Below, piece after piece: positions 42,653 through 55,099 of a DNA stretch of 64,000 nt. Origin of the DNA: Ordospora colligata OC4. Lineage: Eukaryota > Microsporidia > Ordosporidae. Position numbers and translations under genes: made by a program. Position 1 is the first letter of the stretch, and each line of letters opens with the position of its first letter. Where the stretch lies: positions 124,001-188,000 of the forward strand of contig NW_014575403.1 of the NCBI RefSeq assembly GCF_000803265.1. The letters are read 5' to 3'. A model generated the notes under the pieces. It saw only the letters and a list, made by a program, of their open reading frames with translations. It was not told the DNA's origin and did no database searches.

Positions 42653-43154
42653 CCAAGGGCTGCTCCACTGTAATTTGTCATATCTACAAAATTCAATAAC
42701 AATATCATAGTAATCAGCAAGATTACAATATCCATTTTATTTGCTTGCTCAGTAAATCATAAAACAGCATTCTCATAAATGTACAAACAATCATAACACA
42801 ATATTACAACACATTAAACTAAATTAGATTCCGATTCCACCAAACATACTCACAATCTAATAATCATTTTATTACTTATCACTTACAGTGCTTATCATAC
42901 TCTTAGTTTCATGCTTTTTGATCTACTGGGTTTAGTCACATTTATTTACAAAACTTCATTTTACATCTGTGATTATCAAAGCTATGATCTAGAACACAAT
43001 CATTTAGTGGTAGTCGAGTAAATGCAATATATCAATGTTTAATCACAATCACTCATTGATGTTATCACATTATACTCACTTACATATACACATTATACAT
43101 AAACTATTCATTATCTATTTATTTTATATATTATATCTAACTATTAACCTTACT
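42653..43154. other. AT-rich spacer at the left edge of the island
   Basis: 502 bp without a gene. The part from about 42962 to 43160 closely resembles 51097-51365 (shared runs such as ACATCTGTGATTATCA and AATCACAATCACTCAT). A short block near 42866 (TCATTTTATTACTTATCAC) recurs near 53710. It is thus the 3' flank of a duplicated unit. Confidence 0.6.
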
Positions 43155-44882
43155 TTACTCTTGCAATATTTCATTGTTAATTTCACTATTCTTAACCATA
43201 TTCATAATCTGTGTTGACCATCCTGTTATTGCTACACAAAATGTAAAGAAAATCACGGACGCATTCTTAGCCATTATAGCTTTACCATTCTCATTATTTT
43301 TATCAATCTTCTTATTCTCAGTATTCTTATTCTTAGAACCTATAAACGCTAGTACACTTCCTATTAACATTGCTACACTCATTGCTATTATTATTATGCT
43401 AATTATATTCACATAATTACTCATAGCTATTGTACAAATTCTCATTATTGCTAGTAATGCACTGCATCCTATCATGACTGCATCGTACCATATAGTAGTC
43501 CTTTTCTCATTCATTAAATACATAACCACACTTATAATCATTAACACAATTGATGTAGCCATAATCATCTTGTTAATAACCACTCTATCAAATATTTCAT
43601 TTCCATTCTTCAATGCATTCATTATACTCATTCCTGTAATCACTGCTTCAGCAACTATCAGTAACACTGCTGCAACTATTGGTATTATATTCTTCATTTG
43701 TCCATTTACCTTCGCTATAATTTTTGCTACTTCTTCATGTTTTTCTTTTGATACTTTTATAGTGACATTATCATTCAAGATCTCTTCGATCATGCTCTTC
43801 CTGATATATACAAGATAATACCCAGAATATTCACGCATTATATCTTTATACGGATGCTTGCCTCCAAAGTTCCCCTCCATCACTTCCTCCTTTCTGCTCT
43901 TTGTGACAACTCCATCGTTGAATTTCAACCACTCTCCTCCATGCTTCAGGTATGCATAGAAATGACCTTCCTCAACATCTCCTCTGTGCACAATAACCGA
44001 ATACAGTTCATATTCATTCATATTAGCTCTATTCTCATTCTTTGATTCTTCTAAACCATCAATTCTCTGCTCATCCACAAATTGCTTCATATCCAATACA
44101 TCAGGATACTCAAAATAATCATTTAATTTATATCTCGTTTCAGTATTAAGATTAAAATAGAACCGCTTAAGTAATACAAAAATCACTGGAGGAAGCTCTC
44201 CAAACATCACTCCCTTTTCTGCATTAACAAGTCCATGCTTCTCACAACTGTATTGATTGCTCCCCTCTAACCGCTCAGTTTTCACATATCTCTTCAGTGA
44301 TTCAATCAGACTCAAGTCCAACTTATTGTTCATAAAGTCCTTAATCTCTACCTGGATGTCTTGGAACTTCTCCTCTTTCCTTCGGAAACATCCACAATCT
44401 GCCTTGATGTAGGTTATCTGTTCTCCTTGTATAAGCTTCTCAATAAACTCTTTGTTTCCACTATCTTTCTGAAGCGAATTAAATAAAATCTTCGAAAATT
44501 CATGGACGTCTTGTTGCACATGCATGTTATCAAACCATGCATTATTGACAACAAAATCCGTCGTGTCAACCATCTTCCTATTCTCTTGCATCGCCTTGAA
44601 CAACCTTTGCAAAGACAACATTATTCCCTTTGGCTCCTGTGCATAAACGTAATTCCTAAACTTTCTTATTCCAAATAGCGTCTGCATCACCGAGTTCATG
44701 TAGCATGTTGTTCCAAGGTGGTTCTTCAGTCCAACATATCCTGTCGACTCCTTCGAATCATATTCCCCACTCACTACATCCACTCTAATATTATCCTCGT
44801 CACTGTCTTCAACATAAACTCCAGTACCTGCCTTCGAAAACTGTTTGGATTCTATCTTCGATCCATTCGATGTTGTATCCAT
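43155..44882 (-). CDS. USP7-like deubiquitinase fused to a five-helix membrane module
   Basis: 575 aa. Residues about 46-362 form a ubiquitin-specific protease domain closest by eye to USP7/Ubp15: GYVGLKNHLGTTCYMNSVMQ (nucleophile Cys60, oxyanion Asn54), HVQQDVHEFSKIL, EKGVMFGELPPVIFVLLKRF and RGDVEEGHFYAYLKHGGEWLKFND (His307, Asp323). The catalytic set is complete. The MATH and UBL domains of USP7 are absent. Residues about 398-560 instead hold five hydrophobic helices (398-422, 434-457, 466-486, 490-514, 540-560) ending INNEILQE. No N-terminal signal peptide, so the protease should face the cytosol of an internal or surface membrane. Start: ATG after gatccccag on the minus strand. Confidence 0.88.
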   Translation of the reverse strand: MDTTSNGSKIESKQFSKAGTGVYVEDSDEDNIRVDVVSGEYDSKESTGYVGLKNHLGTTCYMNSVMQTLFGIRKFRNYVYAQEPKGIMLSLQRLFKAMQENRKMVDTTDFVVNNAWFDNMHVQQDVHEFSKILFNSLQKDSGNKEFIEKLIQGEQITYIKADCGCFRRKEEKFQDIQVEIKDFMNNKLDLSLIESLKRYVKTERLEGSNQYSCEKHGLVNAEKGVMFGELPPVIFVLLKRFYFNLNTETRYKLNDYFEYPDVLDMKQFVDEQRIDGLEESKNENRANMNEYELYSVIVHRGDVEEGHFYAYLKHGGEWLKFNDGVVTKSRKEEVMEGNFGGKHPYKDIMREYSGYYLVYIRKSMIEEILNDNVTIKVSKEKHEEVAKIIAKVNGQMKNIIPIVAAVLLIVAEAVITGMSIMNALKNGNEIFDRVVINKMIMATSIVLMIISVVMYLMNEKRTTIWYDAVMIGCSALLAIMRICTIAMSNYVNIISIIIIAMSVAMLIGSVLAFIGSKNKNTENKKIDKNNENGKAIMAKNASVIFFTFCVAITGWSTQIMNMVKNSEINNEILQE

Positions 44883-45102
44883 CTGGGGATCTTCTCAAAG
44901 CATTTAACACACTCTACTCATCATGTGCAGCATTATCAGTAAACAACCAATTATATAATATGAAAGATATACATATGACATAGAGAAAGTTTGTATTTGT
45001 TCATAGATATTGGAATATTGATGTAAAAGTATAAAGTGATTGAGATACATAAACATAAGTGAAATAAACAGATTGATAACACTCAAGACATTTGCAATAT
45101 GC

Positions 45103-45887
45103 ATGCAGATGTACATGGTATGCGTAGGTTGTATTTGGATGAATAAATTGGATATGATAGATAACGTTATGATCGATCAAGATTCGTTCAAAAATAAANA
45201 GGGAACTATAAAATTACTACATCAAGATATCAAAAATAATCACATTTTTCCGTTTAAAAATTGTATAATCAGATCATTGAATCATTTAGAGAAGTACAAA
45301 AAACTACTTTTGCTTTATTTAAAGGATTGTGAACTTATTCTTGATACTCGATTTAATACAACACTTATTATTCCAGAGAAGTTTACAAATCTTCAGTATC
45401 TGGAAATCTAAAATGTATGGAAATATTACAGATGCTATATAAACTTAACTCTGAACCAGATAAAAGCATTGAAGATGGGGTAGTCGATATTAATGTTACA
45501 AAGTGTTCCTATTTAAAGTCAGTTCAATTACCAGATGAAAAAAACTAACATTGCTTAAACTCAGTGATAACCCAAAACTTAATAAAATAGAAAAATTCAA
45601 GGTACTAAGTGGTATGAACAATTGAAGATAATTGATTTCAGTAACATAGATATAGATATGACATCACTGCCGCGGCGAATACCGAAACTAGCAAAGAATA
45701 AAAGTATACAAAAATCGATATTACTGGTTGTAAGTTTATTAAAAGAGGCAATAAGGTAAATAATACAGCAGGATACCAGGACTTGGAAAAGGCTTTTTGT
45801 AAATGTAAAAATAAATTTGGTAAAGATATAGTTGTTGGATTAGAGAAGAATCAATTAAAAACTAATAAGCATAATGGAGATGAATAA
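45103..45887 (+). pseudogene. Frameshifted leucine-rich-repeat-like gene
   Basis: The only plus-strand coding remnant in the island. LRR-like text runs through several frames: one to the stop at 45411 (KLLLLYLKDCELI, FTNLQYLEI), a second from 45417 to 45548 (CSYLKSVQLPDEK), a third soon after (LTLLKLSDNPKLNKIEKF), a fourth (QLKIIDFSNIDIDMTSLP) and a fifth ending with a TAA at 45887 (KIDITGCKFIKRGNKVNN). Breaks fall at A-runs, and an n occurs at 45199. Either a decayed gene or a mixture of decay and sequencing errors. LRR protein families are known in microsporidia. The start is uncertain; several ATGs lie between 45103 and 45142. Confidence 0.6.
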
Positions 45888-46256
45888 AATATATCACCAA
45901 ATAACAGGCCAAGTTTTGATGATGGTTTAAGTGGATAGAGGTGATGATATACCAATGTAAGTTGATCAAAATCAGATCAGTCAATAATAAAACAATAAAG
46001 TTGATATATGACTAATTACGCACACTAACACAATGCTATTAATAAATAATAAATATCTTTATCTCACTAACTAAATCATCTCACATCTATTTATATTCAT
46101 GATCTCACATTATTCTACTATGCTAATAATTACCTGAACTTCACTGAATATCATCATTACTCAATAATATCCACACATCTCTCAAATACACTATAATCAA
46201 TTATTCGATACTTATTTATTATTAACTAATACTTTTATATACATTCTCATATCACT
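45888..46256. other. AT-rich intergenic DNA
   Basis: 369 bp between the LRR-like remnant and the broken family member to its right. Very AT-rich, no open frame of note and no RNA gene recognised. Confidence 0.5.
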
Positions 46257-47399
46257 TTACTCTTGCATTATTTCATTGCTCGTTTCATTATTCTTATTCA
46301 TATCCATAACCTGTGCTATCCATCCACTCAATATCATTACACATGTAAATCCAATCAATATCGCATTCTTAGTCATTATACCTTTACCATTCCCATTCTT
46401 TTCACCACTCTTCTTACTCTCGTTATTCTTACCTTTATTAATCTTAGGATCTATAATCACCACTATACTTGTTATTAGCATTCCTACACTTATTACTATC
46501 ATCACTATGCTAATTACATTCACATAATTACTCATGAATACTGTACAAATCCTCATTACCATTAATAATGCATTACATCCTATCATCACTACATCATACC
46601 ATAATCATTAAAAATCCAATTTGCTTTGCTTTAGTTATATCAATCTTACTTATAAACTTTATAATATCATCAGGTTGTATATCATTTATCTTTTGAGTAT
46701 TATAGTCATCTATATTATGTAAACCCCAAAAATCCTTCGTTTTATCTTCCGATATGTGTGCATTTATAAGTTTATCAATGATCTCTTCAGTTAGCTTTTG
46801 ATTTTCACTTGGATCAATCGTGCTAATTACTTTTACCCATGCATTCAAATATTTAGTATCTTTATAATCATTTACAAGATAATTCACAATGTCTTACTTA
46901 CATTATGTTTAATTAATTTATGTTTTTCAACAGACAAAATACACCATGCATCTTTATTTATTATCGATTCAACATTTTCAGCATCTTTATCTTTCTCCAA
47001 CCTTTCTATTTCTTTACCCACAAATGAATCAAAGATATTGATGCCATATTCATAAATCTTATTAAACTTAGGTTTAAGTTCAGAATAAAGATTAGGATCT
47101 GCAATACATTTAAAAAGAATATTTAGTGCATTATAGTTGTCGTTTTCTATATATTTATCTGATTCAATCCACTCTTTATTAATGTCTACAATAATCTTTT
47201 CAGAATCAATCTCAAAGAATTTCTTAAAAAATACCTTTTTTATATCTTCAAATTTATCATGCTTCAAAACTTCCATGAAAATTTCGGTTGTTATGGTTGC
47301 CATCAATCTTGTTTGGTCTACATCTTTTTGTTTATCATCTCCATTCGTAAACGCATTAATTATCTCACTTACCTTGTTTCCACCATTATTATTCACCAT
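46257..47399 (-). pseudogene. Broken island-family gene with partial membrane module
   Basis: Reads from ATG 47399 (MVNNNGGNKVSEIINAF) for 171 codons to a stop at 46884. It continues in another frame (NYLVNDYKDTKYLNAWVKVI) to about 46594, and in a third frame from about 46616 (WYDVVMIGCNALLMVMRICT) to the stop at 46257, ending SNEIMQE. The third piece is a copy of the last three helices of the USP7-like gene's C-terminal module (WYDAVMIGCSALLAIMRICT there); the first two helices are missing, so an internal deletion is likely. The 5' leader is the one shared by the other island genes. No USP domain. Function unknown. Confidence 0.7.
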
Positions 47400-47440
47400 G
47401 ACAAGGGTAGCCCGTTTCTGATATCATATCATATTCATAT
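47400..47440 (-). promoter_or_regulatory. Shared island 5' leader, copy 1
   Basis: Read on the minus strand it contains GATATCAGAAACGGGC then TACCCTTGTC before ATG. It corresponds closely to the leader at 50906-50945 and more loosely to that at 53531-53575. Confidence 0.55.
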
Positions 47441-47704
47441 AATCTCATTCTCCATATTCATACAATTACATCTCCATCCAATAAAATTGCACAATACTAC
47501 ACAATCACATGTATACATGTTATTGCTAGTGAATTCATCAATCCAACTATATTCGTAAAGAAATAAGAATCTCAGGTCCAATAATAAGCCTAGATTATTT
47601 CTCATCATCATATATGCACTATTTCATTAGATACAATCACACTCAATACATTACAACTACATAATAGTAATTAATTGTTTTATTTATATACTCTTATCAT
47701 ACTC
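47441..47704. other. AT-rich intergenic DNA
   Basis: No gene seen between the leader of the broken family member and the end of the next gene. Together with the leader this makes a gap of about 305 bp. Confidence 0.5.
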
Positions 47705-48997
47705 TCAAGCTGCAGATATTGCTTCCAATACTTCACCTGCAGGTGACGCTTGTCTATCTTCTATCTCTTTATCAACAATAATTTTATAAGCACATGTTAG
47801 TACAAATAGTATATAAAATATCATTCCAGTTCTTACATTGGCTTTGATCAGCACAGTATTTCTATTTTTATCTTCATTACCAACTTTTATAATATCATCA
47901 AAATATGATATATTGGGATTAATCTGTTCATTTATAATCTTCTTATTTTCTTCCTTAATATTACCAATCTGTTCGTCATTAATATTATCAAGTTTAGTAA
48001 ATATCTTTTGATAAATGATTAACGCAACATTTTCTATGATGTTCTTATATTCATCATCTGTGATTGTATTCACTACGGCAGTGGCACCATTGCCTTGTTT
48101 CTTACCTTTTCCTTTTTTAATTTCAATACTTTTATTACCATTGCCAATACTATTCATTTGTTCATCAATATTGTTCTCAATTTCTTTGAAAATTTTGAAC
48201 TCTCTAATACTTAAAATACTTTTCTTCATATTACTGCATATAATATCTTTGCTTTCATCATACAATTTTTTTCCTTCATCATATACGTCATCATATACGC
48301 CAGGGCGGTTCTTCTTTAATTTCTGAAGACTAATAACACACTCTATAAATTGGTACAGGTATCGCTCATTATTATTAATATGATCTCTAATTGCAAGCAA
48401 TCGATTAATTATTTTATCTAGATCATCACTATCACTATGATTATTCTCATGTTCATCTTTTATTGATCCAAGATTGTCTATTATTTTACTAATTGTATTA
48501 GTATCCAATTTTCCATCTGATTTACTTGGTTTAGCTGCTTCATCTGATTTAACCGTCTTGCCTGATTTAACCGTCTTGCCTGATAGACGGTGTTTATTTA
48601 GTTTACCTGATTCATTTGCCTCTTTACTACAATCACTAGCTCCATTAAATATTTCCGATATCTTTTCCTTTTCTATAAATTCATTTTTTGCAATCAATAA
48701 TAAAAATATCCTCAGCATATCAATCCATTCTTTTATACATTCTTGCAGGTCTATCAAGGTATCATAGTTTTTGTTACTTAAAGGCGTATAATATATTTCT
48801 TCCATATAATTTACATGCCTATCTGACTTCTTCGTAGGAATTTCTTTTTCTGTTGATGTAGTTGGCTGTACTTGTGGCACTTTTTCTTGTTTTTCTTTTG
48901 ACGCTACTTGGATTGAAAAAGTTGATACAGAGTTTAATTTATCATTTGAGATATGAAGGTCTAGAATCCCGACTATTCCTGCTTGCTGCTTGTCTTT
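47705..48997 (-). pseudogene. Downstream half of a split island-family gene
   Basis: An open frame from just after a TGA at 48998 to a stop at 47705, about 430 codons. There is no ATG near its beginning (the nominal start at 48880 is GTG, the first ATG is at 48805) and no C-run leader. It is Lys/Asn/Asp-rich, with an internal repeat (GKTVKSGKTVKS), a long helical region and a single hydrophobic segment near the end (MIFYILFVLTCAYKIIV) before a short tail. Best read as the C-terminal half of the gene starting at 50905, separated by small deletions in a coding repeat. Function unknown. Confidence 0.6.
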
Positions 48998-49135
48998 TCA
49001 TCTTTCCTCGTTCTTTCATTCTTTCCTCGTTCTTTTCATTCTTTCCTCTTCCTTTCTTTTCATTCTTTCCTCTTCCTTTCTTTTCATTCTTTTCATTCTT
49101 TTCTCTTCCATTCTTTTCTCTTCTTTAGCTGTTTC
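48998..49135 (-). repeat. Coding repeat tract with unit MKRKEEER, decayed at its 3' end
   Basis: On the minus strand two intact 24-bp units encode MKRKEEER. The following units have lost a few bases each (20, then about 18-19, then a partial one), shifting the frame and creating the stop at 49016. The homopurine sequence is prone to slippage. Confidence 0.7.
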
Positions 49136-50905
49136 AATTATATATTTTACCTTTTTATCAAACAAATCCTCAGACTGTTTATCCTTATTCACTTTTTTAT
49201 CCTCAATAGGCAAAATGCCTACATTACTAAAAAAAATACTTATTATCGTTTTATCTGTACCAGTAAAATCCAAATCATGTTTTTTTTTAATATGTTTAGA
49301 TATGCATTCTATTACTGCTTTTGTAAAATTTATATTTGTATTATAAACCATATCATAAATTTCATCCATATATGTTTGTATAAACTCATGATCCTTTTTT
49401 GATCCACATAAAGCACATAATATGCATTCTAACAAGTATTTGATTGATTCGCCAATCCCTTGTTTCATATACTTTAATATCATTTCATTACAGATTTCAT
49501 CTGGTATTTTAAATTTCTCTGTATATGATGGGTTTCGTATTAGGATTTTTAAAATTGTGGTTGGTAGATTGCGAATAAGATTAAATTTCTTCCCACTATT
49601 TGTATTATTAATATTCTTCATAAAATATATTTCATATTCTTTAAATATATCGTTCAAATCTTTTACATCCCATTCAGAAATATTTTCAGATCCGATCAAT
49701 TCAGACGTATATAATAGTAACTTCCAATACATACAATCATTGTCCTTTTTTATTAATTCAATGGTATCACTAAACTTATCTTTTATGGTTTCAGTTAGTT
49801 TTTTTGTGCCTTTTCTTTCTTGCTTTTCTATGTTTTTAATAGTATCCCATAAAATATTCATCTGGTTTATTATTAATATATCTTTAGATAGACAAGATTC
49901 AAACCACTCAATATATCTTTGAACATTGTCATTCCCAATCAAGTCCAAAAAAAATCTTTTATCAGATCCTTTGATCATCCATAATATACAATCTACTGAA
50001 AACTCTTCTTTTAAAGTTTCGCTAATTTTAGAATGACATGCTTTAAATCCCGATAATAATTCTATTCTATTTTGACTTATATGCGTATTCATTAGGTGTT
50101 CATTGAGTTCTATAGGAATTATTGATCTTAAATACCGGTTGTTAATATTATCAACAAACATTCCAAGTTGATCATGATATTTATGAACAAATTCTTTATC
50201 CTTATTACCAAATCTAGCTGAAAATATGATATCAATAAATTCATTACCATCCTTTATGCATTTTCCGTCTTTTATCTTTTCTAAGAACACTGGCACCATC
50301 ACTTCCTGGTAGAATTTTTTGTGTTCTTTAGTATACGGCTTAATAATATACCACATCAAAATTTCCAAAATATCGCTAGATTTTAAAGCCTTTTCCAATT
50401 GGATTTCCTTAATAGACTCATCATTATATTGTTGTAGGCATCCAGTGAGTCTGTAAACCAAGTACATTTGATTTTTGTGATCAATATTATCAACTTTGTT
50501 CTTATAAACATATGAGTTATCAACGTTTTCGTGACAACTGATAAACTCATAGAAAAGCCTTAATAATTTATAAGAATCGATTTCTTTTGTTTGACGATAG
50601 CACATGTCAAACCATAAAGAAACTTTTTCGGTTTTTTCTGTATTACTACTACTTTGTTCTTCCTTCAGGTTAGCCATATAAATAGCATGTTCTGCCATGG
50701 TTGTATTAAAAATATGAAGTAAGTATAAATAAATACGGTTTATACACTCTTCGACTGGTAGATCATTCTTAATTTTTTGTAATTCATTAGGAAATGTTAT
50801 AAGGTTTTCGTTTTCCAGACGTTCTAAATGTTGCAGAATTTCCAATTGTATCTTCACACATTTTTTTTTATTACTAATATTTTGAGATTTATCATTATTC
50901 GTCAT
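49016..50905 (-). CDS. Large Lys-rich island-family protein (N-terminal half of split gene)
   Basis: 629 aa, not recognised. Begins MTNNDKSQNISNKKKCVKIQ; the M(V/T)NN start and the 5' leader are shared with the genes at 47399 and 53530. Helical throughout, rich in Lys, Ile, Asn and Glu, with no signal peptide, zinc motif or known catalytic motif; it looks like a helical-repeat scaffold. The C-terminus is the MKRKEEER low-complexity tract, where a frameshift ends the frame. The continuing frame at 47705-48997 supplies a membrane anchor, so the original protein was probably about 1,060 residues. It may be a pseudogene or affected by an assembly error. Confidence 0.65.
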   Translation of the reverse strand: MTNNDKSQNISNKKKCVKIQLEILQHLERLENENLITFPNELQKIKNDLPVEECINRIYLYLLHIFNTTMAEHAIYMANLKEEQSSSNTEKTEKVSLWFDMCYRQTKEIDSYKLLRLFYEFISCHENVDNSYVYKNKVDNIDHKNQMYLVYRLTGCLQQYNDESIKEIQLEKALKSSDILEILMWYIIKPYTKEHKKFYQEVMVPVFLEKIKDGKCIKDGNEFIDIIFSARFGNKDKEFVHKYHDQLGMFVDNINNRYLRSIIPIELNEHLMNTHISQNRIELLSGFKACHSKISETLKEEFSVDCILWMIKGSDKRFFLDLIGNDNVQRYIEWFESCLSKDILIINQMNILWDTIKNIEKQERKGTKKLTETIKDKFSDTIELIKKDNDCMYWKLLLYTSELIGSENISEWDVKDLNDIFKEYEIYFMKNINNTNSGKKFNLIRNLPTTILKILIRNPSYTEKFKIPDEICNEMILKYMKQGIGESIKYLLECILCALCGSKKDHEFIQTYMDEIYDMVYNTNINFTKAVIECISKHIKKKHDLDFTGTDKTIISIFFSNVGILPIEDKKVNKDKQSEDLFDKKVKYIIETAKEEKRMEEKRMKRMKRKEEERMKRKEEERMKRTRKE

Positions 50906-50945
50906 TATGAGGGTAATTTGTTTCTGATATTATATCGATTCACTA
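50906..50945 (-). promoter_or_regulatory. Shared island 5' leader, copy 2
   Basis: On the minus strand ATAATATCAGAAACAAA then TTACCCTCATA precedes ATG. Matches the leader at 47400-47440 at most positions, including spacing from the C-run to the ATG. Confidence 0.55.
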
Positions 50946-51358
50946 GCATTTGCAATATCTATAAAATATCATTCTCATCAAACAAATTTATCACACATAT
51001 TGTATGTTACTGCACATTGCATAGATATTCTCATCATATCAACTTAATCATCATTCATTATATCTGCGGTTGAGAGACTTTTGAAACAATTCATTTCACA
51101 TCTGTGATTATCACAGTTACAACCTACAACTCAATCTAGAATACAATCATTCTATAATAACTCAATATATGTAATATATATCAATGTGTAATTCACAATC
51201 ACTCATCCATGTTATCACATATTTACTAACATTATGTACATCTCATTCACATATACTCTACTCTACATCATACACAAACTATTCATTATTCATTATCATT
51301 TATTTTACATCTTATATATCATATTACTACATTAACATTACTTTATACCATTTCTACT
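50946..51358. other. Intergenic DNA including a duplicated 3' flank
   Basis: No gene. From about 51097 rightwards it is a diverged copy of 42962-43160, lying in the same position relative to the end of the membrane module in both places. Confidence 0.55.
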
Positions 51359-51719
51359 TTACTCTTACAACATTCCATTATTACCACAGAAAATGAACAA
51401 ATTGCCACTAAAAATACCACATTCTTAGCTATTACATCTTTGTCACTCTCATTCTTTTCATTACTCTTCTTAATCTTATTTCTATTAAAAAAGCTACTAC
51501 AATCGTTATTGCCATAATAAAACTTATTAGCATCATCATTATACTAATTATATTCACATAGTTACTCATAAAACATTGTAAAAATTCTCATCAATGCTAC
51601 ACATACACTTCATCCTATCATCACTACATCATACAACACAGATCTGTTTCTACTCATCACATATGCAATCACACTCAGCATTACCATCACACTCGCTATT
51701 GTTGTTATAACCTTGTTAA
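51359..51719 (-). pseudogene. Decayed copy of the USP-linked membrane module
   Basis: Directly downstream of the stop of the 51716-53530 gene, the minus strand still encodes the rest of the membrane module in broken frames. VVINKVITTIASVMVML and LYDVVMIG run to a TGA where the USP copy has a Cys codon; SVCVALMRIFTM follows and, after a frame change, MSNYVNIISIMMM. Each block aligns with helices 2-4 of the USP-linked module in the same order. About five residues between helices 1 and 2 are missing, which explains the frameshift. Confidence 0.75.
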
Positions 51720-53530
51720 TCACTACATTTATTCCCATTCATCAATGCACTTATTACACTAATCACACTCATCAATACTTCAACAATCATCATAACAACT
51801 ACTGTCGTTATTATTGATACATTTATCATATTCATCTTCTGTTCTCGTTTATTTTTATTCAATAATTTCTGTTGTTCTTCATATGCATTCTTATTTGCTT
51901 CTTTATCTTTGATTGCATCAATTATCTTCTTACGCAACTGTTCATTCTTAACATTCCCTAGTATCTTTTTCTGCTCTTCAATTGATTTACTCATCAACGC
52001 ATCAATAATCATATCATCAATATTAACCTTATTCAACAATACATTCATCTTCTTTACATTATTCAACAATACATTCATCTTATTTACCTTATCATAAATA
52101 CAGCTCACCAACATATCCAAATCTTCTATGCTAATCATCTTTATCTTATTCAACACCGTTATTATCTCATCTTCATTCATATCAGGTATCATCTCCCCAA
52201 TAACATACGGATTAAAAAATACACACAATCCTGCAATCATTTCATATCCAATACACCAAGGATTTCCATACTCATCATTCACATCATCGATACTTATCTC
52301 TTCCAATTTCTTCATTACTTTCTGTCCTTCAATCTCTTTCGGCATCCTATAAATAAACTCCCTAAGCTTATCTACATCCTTAATTCCAAAAAGTATTTTT
52401 GTAATCAGGATCATATCGCTCTCCTTAATCTTACAAATCATTTTTTTGAACTCTATATCTTTATCATCTCTACTATTTCCATTCTTTCCATTCTTTCCAC
52501 TTTCTCTATCCTTATCTTTAATACTCAACAATACATCTCCTACATAACCATATCCAGTATGAATTCCCATCAAAGTAATCAAATTGTATGTCGAATCCTT
52601 ACTTTCTATCCCAACTAGCATCCTTGCTATCTTATCAAGTCCAACAGATGATTCCTTCAGCATTTTCATCAACTTAATACATTCATCTGTATCAATAGCA
52701 CAACCATCTTTGTTAATAGAGCGATCCTTCAACAACTCTTTAATTGGATCATCTTCAACCGCATAAAATATCTTTTTTGTATCATTCTTTTCTTTTTCTT
52801 TTTCTTTTTCTTTTTCTTTTTCTTTTTCTTTTATTTTATAGTAATAGTAATAGATAACATAAATCAATATATCCGTTCTGTGTATATTCCCTAGTTGCCC
52901 TAATATCATCGTTCTTTTATCATCCTCTATATTTAGCAACAAGTTTACAATATCATTAACTTCATAGATACTCCATATAATTGCTATAGTTTCTTTTGTA
53001 AACGTTTGATCTGGCTTACTTAGTCTATTACTCAGTTCAGTCAAAAATGACTTGTTTTTATAAAAATGTGTTATAATAAGTTGCATAATTTCTTTTATTC
53101 TAGAATATAGTTTTTTTCCTTCAAACTGGTTTTCAGTCATCTTCTGCTTGAATTCATTAAACTCTTTCTCCAATGCTTCTACATTACTCCATGTTATTAC
53201 AAGTTCAATTTCTTTAAATGGGTTATCGATTTTTTGTTTAATCCAATCAGGTACTGTTAGCTTTGCCTTTTCAAAACGCTCCCTAAGTTCTTTCAGAACC
53301 ATAAATTTCACTACTAGATCATCAATGCGATCTATCATTTTTTCCAACTCATTATAATATTCATCTCTCCAAATACCCTCAATTCCATTCAGAAATGCTG
53401 CCATTTCCTCTCCATTCCTTTCTGGTGAATTCGATGCCGTTAGTGATGCATTCACTATAACTTCTTTCAATTTCTCTTGTGCGCTCAACTCTGCCTGTTT
53501 TATAATTTTTTCATTTTTGTTATTAACCAT
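51716..53530 (-). CDS. Large island-family protein with one remaining membrane helix
   Basis: 604 aa, not recognised. Starts MVNNKNEKIIKQAELSAQEK; the ATG at 53530 follows gattgcccttaca, and codons upstream of it lack an ATG. Long helical, Lys/Glu/Ile-rich body with a (KE)n tract near the middle and a local tandem duplication (MNVLLNNVKK/MNVLLNKVN). The C-terminus holds one hydrophobic segment (IITTVVVMMIVEVLMSVISV) equivalent to helix 1 of the USP-linked module, then stops at NGNKCSD where the USP protein continues NGNEIFDR. It could still be expressed as a single-pass protein. Function unknown. Confidence 0.65.
   Translation of the reverse strand: MVNNKNEKIIKQAELSAQEKLKEVIVNASLTASNSPERNGEEMAAFLNGIEGIWRDEYYNELEKMIDRIDDLVVKFMVLKELRERFEKAKLTVPDWIKQKIDNPFKEIELVITWSNVEALEKEFNEFKQKMTENQFEGKKLYSRIKEIMQLIITHFYKNKSFLTELSNRLSKPDQTFTKETIAIIWSIYEVNDIVNLLLNIEDDKRTMILGQLGNIHRTDILIYVIYYYYYKIKEKEKEKEKEKEKEKNDTKKIFYAVEDDPIKELLKDRSINKDGCAIDTDECIKLMKMLKESSVGLDKIARMLVGIESKDSTYNLITLMGIHTGYGYVGDVLLSIKDKDRESGKNGKNGNSRDDKDIEFKKMICKIKESDMILITKILFGIKDVDKLREFIYRMPKEIEGQKVMKKLEEISIDDVNDEYGNPWCIGYEMIAGLCVFFNPYVIGEMIPDMNEDEIITVLNKIKMISIEDLDMLVSCIYDKVNKMNVLLNNVKKMNVLLNKVNIDDMIIDALMSKSIEEQKKILGNVKNEQLRKKIIDAIKDKEANKNAYEEQQKLLNKNKREQKMNMINVSIITTVVVMMIVEVLMSVISVISALMNGNKCSD
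52786..52834 (-). repeat. (TTTTTC)n coding microsatellite encoding Lys-Glu repeats
   Basis: About seven head-to-tail hexamers, plus-strand TTTTTC, read on the minus strand as alternating Lys-Glu. The hexamer length keeps the frame, so copy-number change would alter only linker length. Confidence 0.85.
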
Positions 53531-53575
53531 TGTAAGGGCAATCATTCTTCATTTGATATTTACCTTATATTCTTG
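53531..53575 (-). promoter_or_regulatory. Shared island 5' leader, copy 3 (diverged)
   Basis: On the minus strand AATATCAAATGAAGAATGATT then GCCCTTACA precedes ATG. It keeps the ATATCA element and the CCCT start signal seen in the other two leaders. Confidence 0.45.
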
Positions 53576-53750
53576 TCAGTAATATCAGGTTCTCGAATCC
53601 TCATTTAATTGCTATAATGCATCTAATTACAACATTTAATATCACTGCTCACAATATCACACAAATCACTCTCATATACTATTATACTATACTAAACATA
53701 AAATATAGTCATTTTATTATTTATCACTTACTGTGTCATCTATCAATGAT

Positions 53751-54861
53751 TCATTGTATATCAGATGTTATTTCATCTTCTGGCTGTAGTGGTTTTAAAT
53801 TCGATTCAATACCATTTGCATTTTTATCTTTCTGCGTATATACGAATAGATTCGCTAATATCAACATAATCATCAACATTTTATACGATGCATTCTGCTT
53901 AATATTCTTTTCATCTATGCTTCACTCCAGCTTTGTAAGCTCATATATGGCAACCTTCATGCATATATTTATATCAATATCTTCCTTTATACTCGCTACA
54001 TCCACATCCTTCATCACTTCACCATTAGCATTTTTCATTATCATGCGATTATTCAAATCCTCACATAATTCGTAAATCTTTTCGTTTGTTAAAATTCCGC
54101 TATCCTTTAACTTCTTTATCACAGAATCAACACGTTCAAACGATTGCTTTGTTTCCTCAATGCTATTAGGTCCAGGCACTACACTCACTATATCTGCATT
54201 ATGCAGTTTAACCTCATCAGATTAACTGTGTGTTGATACTGATCCTAATACTATTCACATTCCAGGTACTTCAATTGCGCTACTAGTATATTTTTTCACA
54301 GTTTTTTAATAGTCTTATTATACTTAACAGAACGATTCACTATATCCAACATCACGTACAACATCTTCTGGCGGTTCACATCATCAAGACCAAATAGAAT
54401 GTCTTCCATTTTATGATATCTAACTGATTCATAAAGTATTTTCATAGTCATCTCAAATCCGCTTGCAGGAGAAAGGCTATATTTAATATCTTCATAGTAA
54501 GAATTTAACAAATTAGGGTTATTGTTTAAATATTCATTTAAAAACTTCTTTTTCCTATCTGCTCGAATTAAATCAAATGCCTTCTTCATCGGCTCATATT
54601 TTTAGTAGGATCTGGATATTTATCATAAGCAAAACGATTCAAAAAAGCCATTTCGTGACCAACTGTTAAATTAATTATTTCTGGGTCTTTTAAACATTTA
54701 TATAAAAACTCAATATTGCCTACCATTCTTTTATTTTTTCTCTATAAATCATCTATTACTTTTTTGTTGGTTTCGGATTTATTATTTATTAATTCAATAA
54801 GATTGTCTAAGCTGTTACCAAAATCTTGTCCTTGAATTGGTTTTGGCATTTCTTCATTCAT
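53751..54861 (-). pseudogene. Decayed island-family gene
   Basis: Starts at ATG 54861 after gtcccttttgaa (MNEEMPKPIQGQDFGN). It hits an in-frame TAG after IDDL, continues in the same frame (MVGNIEFLYKCLKDPEI), changes frame near 54595 into MKKAFDLIRADRKKKFLNEY (to 54296), and later resumes at 54188 (MSVVPGPNSIEETKQSFERV). It meets a TGA at 53922 and finishes with a hydrophobic segment (KMLMIMLILANLFVYT) to a stop at 53751. Leader type, composition and C-terminal helix place it with the island proteins. N-terminal similarity to the others is not obvious. Confidence 0.55.
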
Positions 54862-55099
54862 TTCAAAAGGGACTTCTTCTTACTTACAATTTATACACCA
54901 TATATTATCTATACCTACTTATTATTTGCTACAAACTGCCTATGGCATATTCATCTTGCTTTTCATAAACCACTATTAGTCATATCAACCTACTAATAAT
55001 CATATCCTATCAATATAATAATTCTTGATATTCACTATGATCACTTTTCTCAATCTGTTAGTATATAAAAAGTATAATTTGATTACAAATATAATATAT
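54862..55099. other. AT-rich spacer at the right edge of the island
   Basis: About 240 bp between the decayed family gene and RAD10. No gene, repeat or RNA recognised. Confidence 0.5.

What the first reader, a model, noticed from the sequence alone, without database searches (positions are those of the whole stretch)
43155..44882. Membrane-anchored USP7-like deubiquitinase: protease fused to a lineage-specific five-helix module
Seen: a complete USP catalytic set (Cys60, His307, Asp323) in a USP7/Ubp15-like domain, followed by five hydrophobic helices in place of the UBL domains, with no MATH domain. Known: USP7 family members are soluble nuclear or peroxisome-linked enzymes. Inference: this fusion would tether deubiquitination to a parasite membrane and has been created or kept inside a fast-evolving gene island.
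Basis: partly seen in the sequence, partly recalled or inferred. Interest (0 to 1): 0.8.

Follow-up and report, generated by a model that had tools for sequence, protein, structure and literature searches.

The report
Young membrane-anchored deubiquitinase gene chimera
In a tiny-genome parasite of water fleas, half of a housekeeping ubiquitin-removing enzyme gene was recently copied and joined to a membrane-anchor-like tail from a fast-evolving local gene family, giving a young fusion gene whose enzyme part has since changed quickly.

Summary
Window 43155-44882(-) is one open 575-codon frame: a USP7/Ubp15-type protease (UCH E 7e-45) followed by five hydrophobic segments. The genome, taken to be Ordospora colligata OC4, also has the ordinary 943-aa gene without them. 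The window gene is a recent duplicate of that gene, from about 60 bp upstream of its ATG to codon 371, with most of the N-terminal (MATH-position) region deleted, joined to the C-terminal tail of a local gene family (12 tail loci found; one intact member carries an AIG1-like GTPase instead). The 5' breakpoint is visible, because contig C12 shares the flank and then diverges. The copy evolves fast (45 chimera-specific versus 1 native-specific residue changes of 366) and keeps its frame. In OC4 it appears to have converted a central tract of the native gene. Caveat: one extra residue lengthens the oxyanion loop to N-x5-C (32 of 32 relatives that hold the region: N-x4-C), the activating C-terminus is gone, and no purifying selection is shown. 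Best reading: a young tail-captured, cytosol-facing membrane USP of uncertain activity. Main rival: a weak or decaying pseudo-enzyme.

The parts
43155..44882 (-). Chimeric gene, 575 codons plus stop
   Evidence: One open frame. Protein cluster P0001 (90% clusters) also occurs on a 410,041-bp contig, longer than this assembly's C5 (285,325 bp), so another assembly seems to hold a close copy (inference from contig length; the record itself was not seen).
43770..44882 (-). Codons 1-371: duplicate of the native ubp15 5' half (residual N-terminus plus USP domain, Pfam UCH at residues 50-359)
   Evidence: DNA alignment to native gene L016:4885-7716(-), 94% over 1085 columns; GC 38.4%, equal to the native part.
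43155..43769 (-). Codons 372-575: five-helix C-terminal tail of the local gene family
   Evidence: 41% identity over 158 aa to the GTPase-tail protein L017:5027-7411 (E 6e-20); pattern-preserving shuffles z 14; GC 29.9%; hydrophobic segments.
44883..44942 (-). About 60 bp of native ubp15 upstream sequence carried with the duplicate; 5' breakpoint at about 44942, within a short match shared by flank and native gene
   Evidence: Comparison of window, native gene and contig C12, which shares the flank up to 44942 and then diverges.
44703..44705 (-). Codon Cys60, catalytic cysteine
   Evidence: Alignments.
44718..44723 (-). Codons Asn54 (conserved oxyanion Asn) and inserted His55; spacing N-x5-C instead of N-x4-C
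43962..43964 (-). Codon His307, catalytic histidine
43914..43919 (-). Codons Asn322 (aligned with USP7 D481) and Asp323 (aligned with USP7 D482)
   Evidence: alignment; residue roles from PMC10867860.
43861..44470 (-). 610-nt tract identical to the native gene of this assembly apart from one 21-nt in-frame deletion in the chimera; candidate gene-conversion tract (informative part 43992-44405)
   Evidence: the assembly's native protein and P0002 are identical at 922 of 943 residues, and all 21 differences lie at native 220-364 and equal the chimera.
44942..46410 (-). Flanking segment X, 99.3% identical to the start of contig C12 (C12:1-1469), where other sequence follows instead of the USP duplicate
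46257..46604 (-). Neighbouring copy of the tail (115-codon open frame), without USP
   Evidence: 57% aa identity over 112 codons; DNA 74% over 427 columns including 3' flank; stops in the wider match.
51361..51747 (-). Third tail copy in the island, frame broken, downstream of a 609-codon frame (51716-53545) without a significant Pfam match

Best explanation
A young chimeric gene. (1, shown from sequence) A piece of the native ubp15 gene, from about 60 bp upstream of the ATG to codon 371, was duplicated into an AT-rich island that holds several members of a local multigene family. (2, shown from sequence) It is joined in frame to the five-helix C-terminal tail of one member; most of the MATH-position region is missing by in-frame deletion. 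(3, shown from sequence) The copy has changed rapidly, while the native gene has hardly changed. (4, inferred) The gene is read from the carried-over ubp15 start region. The protein inserts through the tail with the USP domain facing the parasite cytosol: no N-terminal hydrophobic segment, and the charge balance favours N-in (about 11 versus 4 K+R). There it trims ubiquitin from parasite membrane cargo, in the manner of ER-anchored USP19. (5, inferred) Having lost the native C-terminal half and with a one-residue-longer oxyanion loop, it is a low-activity or retuned enzyme whose main gain is location. (6, likely but not certain) In strain OC4 it donated a central tract back to the native gene by gene conversion.
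For: Native gene found in the same genome. DNA alignment gives both junctions; C12 shares the 5' flank and diverges at the breakpoint (only this side is seen, and which copy of the flank is older is unknown). GC changes at the 3' junction, 38.4% to 29.9%. Tail family: 12 distinct loci (a lower bound by the tool's own note): 3 in long intact frames, 6 with stops, 3 cut by contig starts; 6 of 12 lie within 7 kb of a contig end. One intact member carries an AIG1-like GTPase (AIG1 E 1.1e-7, above the curated cut-off), also present at 97% over the tail in a second O. colligata record, P0036. Age: 30 positions where chimera equals native (P0002) but not O. pajunii, against 1 the other way, so the duplication postdates the species split. 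Rate: 45 chimera-specific versus 1 native-specific of 366 aligned positions, 6 unresolved; 3 of the 45 sit at the deletion edge where the alignment is uncertain. Frame kept: 5 of 5 indels in the USP part are multiples of three (chance 0.004 if independent). USP fold modelled with high confidence (10-residue means mostly 85-98 from 41 to 370, lower at 111-130 and 271-290). Of 5 USP genes found in the genome, only this one overlaps a tail match.
Against: No transcript, protein, localisation or activity data. Non-patch dN/dS is 1.7 (28 N, 4 S; Fisher p 0.48): not different from 1, so no purifying selection is shown. Absence of stops alone is weak evidence (P 0.05-0.36 under neutral simulation). 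Ten residues invariant among P0002-P0016 are changed (about 16 expected at random). The extra loop residue is seen in no relative that holds the region. The tail is modelled with low confidence (pLDDT below 50 at nearly all residues from 419 on), and recent tail pairs give dN/dS of 0.84-0.92, so constraint on the tail is weak too. MATH and UBL domains of the native gene are inferred from position and the record's name; neither Pfam nor USP7 structures (match only 80-458) detect them.
Confidence: 0.55

Rival explanations
1. Catalytically weak or dead chimera: a pseudo-enzyme that at most binds ubiquitin at a membrane, or a duplicate on its way to decay whose open frame has survived by its youth.
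For: N-x5-C loop seen in none of 32 relatives that hold the region; loss of the C-terminal half, which in human USP7 is needed for full activity (PMC6335408 abstract and passages); dN/dS about 1.7, not below 1; tail relatives are often broken (6 of 12 with stops).
Against: Cys, His, Asn/Asp retained; all 5 indels in frame; USP fold modelled well; substitutions fall somewhat less often in invariant columns than random (10 against about 16).
Confidence: 0.35
2. Assembly artefact: the fusion was made by joining reads of two loci in a short-read draft.
For: The 2015 draft is described as short-read-based (PMC12449221 passages) and OC4 is that assembly (PMC9997559 passages); near-identical copies of nearby sequence sit at contig starts, and one ambiguous base lies nearby (45199).
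Against: The USP copy is about 7% different from the native gene at DNA level outside the shared tract and has no further close copy in the genome; a member of the same 90% cluster lies on a 410,041-bp contig, longer than this assembly's C5; the joined frame is open and the tail ends in frame.
Confidence: 0.04
3. The conversion tract in the native gene is an assembly switch, not gene conversion; the chimera stays real.
For: At both borders the tract runs into sequence shared by all three proteins (about 65 nt and 131 nt; for P0002 known only at protein level), and the draft used short reads.
Against: The tract is flanked on both sides by native-specific sequence, and the ancestral tract would have to be missing from the draft: the genome search returned only these two close USP7-type copies.
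Confidence: 0.35
4. Host-directed effector: the USP faces or enters the host cell and removes host ubiquitin.
For: Fast evolution and location in a rapidly changing island are typical of host-facing genes (general knowledge).
Against: No N-terminal hydrophobic segment; charge balance puts the USP in the parasite cytosol.
Confidence: 0.08

Closest known systems
Native Ordospora Ubp15/USP7 orthologue (P0002; L016:4885-7716)
   Same: Source of the protease part; same USP fold and Cys/His/Asn-Asp set
   Different: Native: full N-terminal region (MATH position), about 500-residue C-terminal half (UBL position), N-x4-C loop, no hydrophobic segment. Chimera: most of the N-terminal region and the whole C-terminal half gone, N-x5-C, five-helix tail
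USP19 (ER-anchored) and USP30 (mitochondrial outer membrane)
   Same: A USP domain and membrane segment in one polypeptide; USP19 likewise has a C-terminal membrane segment with cytosolic catalysis (PMC4755399 passages)
   Different: Different USP subfamily; the chimera's anchor is a five-helix family tail, independently acquired and recent
O. colligata GTPase-tail protein (P0035/P0036, named 'cell division protein' by the source)
   Same: Same five-helix C-terminal tail behind an unrelated soluble domain
   Different: AIG1-like GTPase instead of USP
Chimeric young genes such as Drosophila jingwei (recalled, no call)
   Same: Duplicate of an enzyme gene fused to part of another gene, followed by rapid evolution
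   Different: Here the partner is a membrane-type tail of a gene family, and back-conversion to the parent is likely

Membership tests
USP (peptidase C19) fold, USP7/Ubp15 group | UCH domain with Cys and His boxes | tested here: met
   UCH E 7.3e-45; Cys60, His307
USP (peptidase C19) fold, USP7/Ubp15 group | Closest to USP7 among solved USPs | tested here: met
   phmmer best USP7 5e-57; Foldseek best USP7 2.7e-36
USP7/Ubp15 full architecture | N-terminal MATH/TRAF domain | tested here: not met
   53 residues of this region deleted relative to native. Pfam and USP7 structures do not detect MATH even in the native protein, so the alignment to native is the test
USP7/Ubp15 full architecture | C-terminal UBL domains and activating tail | tested here: not met
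   Homology to native ends at codon 371; the tail does not match native residues 372-943 (z 1.2). That the native C-terminal half is UBL rests on its name and position
Active USP | Oxyanion Asn at N-x4-C spacing | tested here: not met
   N-x5-C; 32 of 33 relatives N-x4-C, the other lacks the region
Active USP | Ubiquitin cleavage | not testable with these tools
   Needs recombinant protein
Membrane-anchored USP (works like USP19/USP30) | Membrane segments in the same polypeptide | tested here: met
   Five hydrophobic segments, predicted only; native gene has none
Membrane-anchored USP (works like USP19/USP30) | Membrane localisation with cytosolic catalytic domain | not testable with these tools
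   Charge balance favours it
O. colligata five-helix tail family | C-terminal homology to family members beyond hydropathy pattern | tested here: met
   z 14 (C8), 8 (C1), 24 (neighbour at 46257) against pattern-preserving shuffles; a further candidate, L021:4987-6636, failed (z 2.3; hhalign probability 1.65) and is not counted

The most novel reading that the evidence does not exclude
The five-helix tail is a portable membrane anchor in a subtelomere-like gene family that repeatedly captures soluble enzymes (a USP, an AIG1-like GTPase, several unknown helical domains) and so keeps making new membrane enzymes in one of the smallest eukaryotic genomes. The captured copy then acts as a mutator of its parent, returning diverged sequence to the housekeeping USP7 gene by gene conversion.
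Probability: 0.35. Interest if true: 0.75.

Novelty: new variant of a known kind. Interest (0 to 1): 0.58.

Why it matters
Ordospora genomes are among the most reduced in eukaryotes, where genes are mostly lost (general knowledge). Here a gene with a new architecture seems to have arisen within one species, with source gene, 5' breakpoint and uninterrupted flank all visible. It shows that reduced parasites can still build new domain combinations, points to AT-rich family islands as a place where this happens, and suggests that a young duplicate may rewrite part of its parent gene. It also gives a natural test of whether the USP fold works without its C-terminal half and with a lengthened oxyanion loop.

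Tried and rejected
Tail in other organisms: the protein search with residues 372-575 returned only the window's own protein among 3,099 candidates. It missed P0035, which one search shows to be in the database with a 41% identical tail, so its silence is weak evidence. The C8 tail returned only two O. colligata records among 525 candidates and in turn not the chimera. Scans of viral and of bacterial/archaeal contigs gave no confirmed relative. No other microsporidian genome was searchable as DNA. PHROGs gave one weak hit (phrog_15576, E 4e-4, unknown function), taken as hydrophobic-composition noise. L021:4987-6636 looked like a further member by eye but failed the tests. An AlphaFold2 model of P0035 from the single sequence is too poor to use (mean pLDDT 39). 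A telomere-repeat pattern was not found in the window. Horizontal transfer of the protease part was rejected: it is a duplicate of the native gene. The original genome paper (Pombert 2015, recalled) was not seen in the listings and not read. Paper searches that could have shown a prior description (listings, five of them capped, plus passages of two O. colligata papers) showed none; supplements were not open to me.

Full report
What was checked. The ORF at 43155-44882(-) is 575 codons. Pfam gives UCH over residues 50-359 (E 7.3e-45); the best solved relatives are human USP7 (E 5e-57). An AlphaFold2 model built on 31 aligned sequences is confident over the USP domain and poor over the tail; Foldseek puts USP7 first. 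Five hydrophobic segments follow the USP domain; of 33 relatives, 30 have none and 3 have one. By the USP7 alignment the third catalytic residue is Asn322, and Asp323 is the fourth critical residue.

Where it lies. The assembly has 13 contigs and 2.28 Mb; the window is contig C5:124001-188000. A protein on contig C8 is recorded as Ordospora colligata OC4 on a contig of 211,630 bp, the length of C8, so the assembly is taken to be OC4. The gene stands at one end of a 12-kb AT-rich island (26-32% GC in 11 of the 12 1-kb bins from 43000 to 55000) between an ISWI-like SNF2 gene (SNF2 and SLIDE above cut-off, HAND just below) and a Rad10 gene.

Source of the protease part. The same assembly has the ordinary gene on C3 (L016:4885-7716, 943 aa), 922 of 943 residues identical to O. 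colligata ubp15 P0002. Its MATH and UBL domains are assumed from name and position: Pfam matches it only by UCH-type models above cut-off, and USP7 structures match only residues 80-458 of P0002. The DNA alignment shows the window gene to be a duplicate from just upstream of the ATG to codon 371. It lacks 6 residues near the start, 53 of the MATH-position region, 2 before the USP domain and 7 within the tract, and has gained 1: all five indels are in frame (probability 0.004 if independent). Contig C12 begins with 1,469 bp that are 99.3% identical to window 44942-46410 and then continues with different sequence. The duplicate therefore starts at about 44942, 60 bp upstream of the ATG, within a short match shared by flank and native gene (ATTGGTTGTT / ATTGATTGTT). 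Only this side of the site is seen.

Age and rate. Over 366 aligned residues, with P0002 as the native protein and O. pajunii (P0003) as outgroup, 30 positions group chimera with native and 1 groups chimera with O. pajunii; 45 changes are chimera-specific, 1 native-specific and 6 unresolved; 3 of the 45 lie at the deletion edge where alignment is uncertain. The duplication is thus younger than the species split, and nearly all change is in the chimera. Outside the shared tract there are 28 nonsynonymous and 4 synonymous differences in 162 codons (dN 0.075, dS 0.044, ratio 1.7; Fisher p 0.48). Relaxed constraint and positive selection cannot be told apart; no purifying selection is shown. Nine consecutive residues (242-250) are replaced.

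Catalytic caveat. The conserved oxyanion asparagine is followed by an extra histidine. Of 33 relatives, 32 have N-x4-C and one (P0024) starts after the region. The chimera alone has N-x5-C. It also lacks the C-terminal half; [quoted passage not shown] Whether microsporidian Ubp15 is regulated in the same way is unknown.

The tail. It does not resemble the native C-terminus (z 1.2) but matches other loci of the genome. Against shuffles that keep the hydropathy pattern, z is 24 for the neighbour at 46257, 14 for C8 and 8 for C1. Searches from the whole chimera and two further tails give 12 distinct loci, a lower bound: 3 in long intact frames (the chimera, C8, C1), 6 with internal stops, 3 cut by contig starts. 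Six lie within 7 kb of contig ends; C2 and one end of C6 carry copies 99.6% identical over 1,672 columns. The C8 protein combines the tail with an AIG1-like GTPase (E 1.1e-7). AIG1 also scores above its cut-off in 8 of 14 bacterial and archaeal control genomes, so read this as 'P-loop GTPase, AIG1-like'; a second O. colligata record has it with a 97% identical tail. The C1 protein has no match at E 0.001 or better in Pfam. Recent tail pairs give dN/dS of 0.84-0.92, older ones 0.36-0.55. No relative outside O. colligata was found, but one search also missed P0035, so the search is not sensitive.

Exchange with the parent. The 21 residues at which this assembly's native protein differs from P0002 all lie between 220 and 364, and all 21 are the chimera's residue; P0002 agrees with O. 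pajunii at 18 of the 21, and neither has the chimera's residue at the other three. At DNA level 610 nt are identical apart from a 21-nt deletion in the chimera, against 7% divergence in the codons just before. The simplest account is conversion from chimera to native in OC4. Because this is a short-read draft and the tract's borders are shared sequence, an assembly switch is the open alternative (I give it 0.35).

How it probably works. There is no N-terminal hydrophobic segment, and lysine/arginine counts favour the N-terminus inside. The likeliest product is a USP held on the cytosolic face of a parasite membrane, acting on ubiquitinated membrane proteins as USP19 is thought to do at the ER (PMC4755399 passages). 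Expression, insertion and catalysis are inferred. A ubiquitin-binding or decaying pseudo-enzyme is the main rival.

Verdict. Its origin is clear: a young duplicate captured by a family tail. Membrane USPs are known, so this is a new variant of a known kind. What is unusual is the visible birth of the gene in a minimal genome, the use of the same tail behind another enzyme-like domain, and the likely back-conversion.

Noticed in passing
L017:5027-7411 (C8:65027-67411): A P-loop/AIG1-like GTPase is fused to the same five-helix tail; the source calls it 'cell division protein'. A second O. colligata record (P0036, 791 aa) has a 97% identical tail.
   Followed up: partly
window 44942-46410 and L023:1-1469; window 46155-46494 and L021:1-340: Starts of contigs C12 and C6 are 99% identical to parts of the island, suggesting subtelomere-like ectopic duplication or repeat-broken assembly.
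   Followed up: partly
L018 about 3.7-5.4 kb (C2) and L022 about 7.3-9.0 kb (end of C6): Same tail-bearing, stop-containing sequence (99.6% over 1,672 columns) at an interior site about 2 kb from an HSP70 gene on C2 and at the end of C6.
   Followed up: partly
window 44133-44159: Nine consecutive residues (242-250) of the chimera all differ from the native type; denser than elsewhere, origin unknown.
   Followed up: no
window 49016-50905: 629-aa protein without any Pfam match has a 71% identical but frame-broken partial relative on C9.
   Followed up: no
window 51716-53545 and 51361-51747: 609-codon frame whose tail continues in other frames: a broken family member or sequencing errors in AT-rich DNA.
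   Followed up: no
window 45103-45411 and L019:7036-7446: Short frames that look leucine-rich by eye lie next to tail-family genes in both places; judged from the letters only.
   Followed up: no
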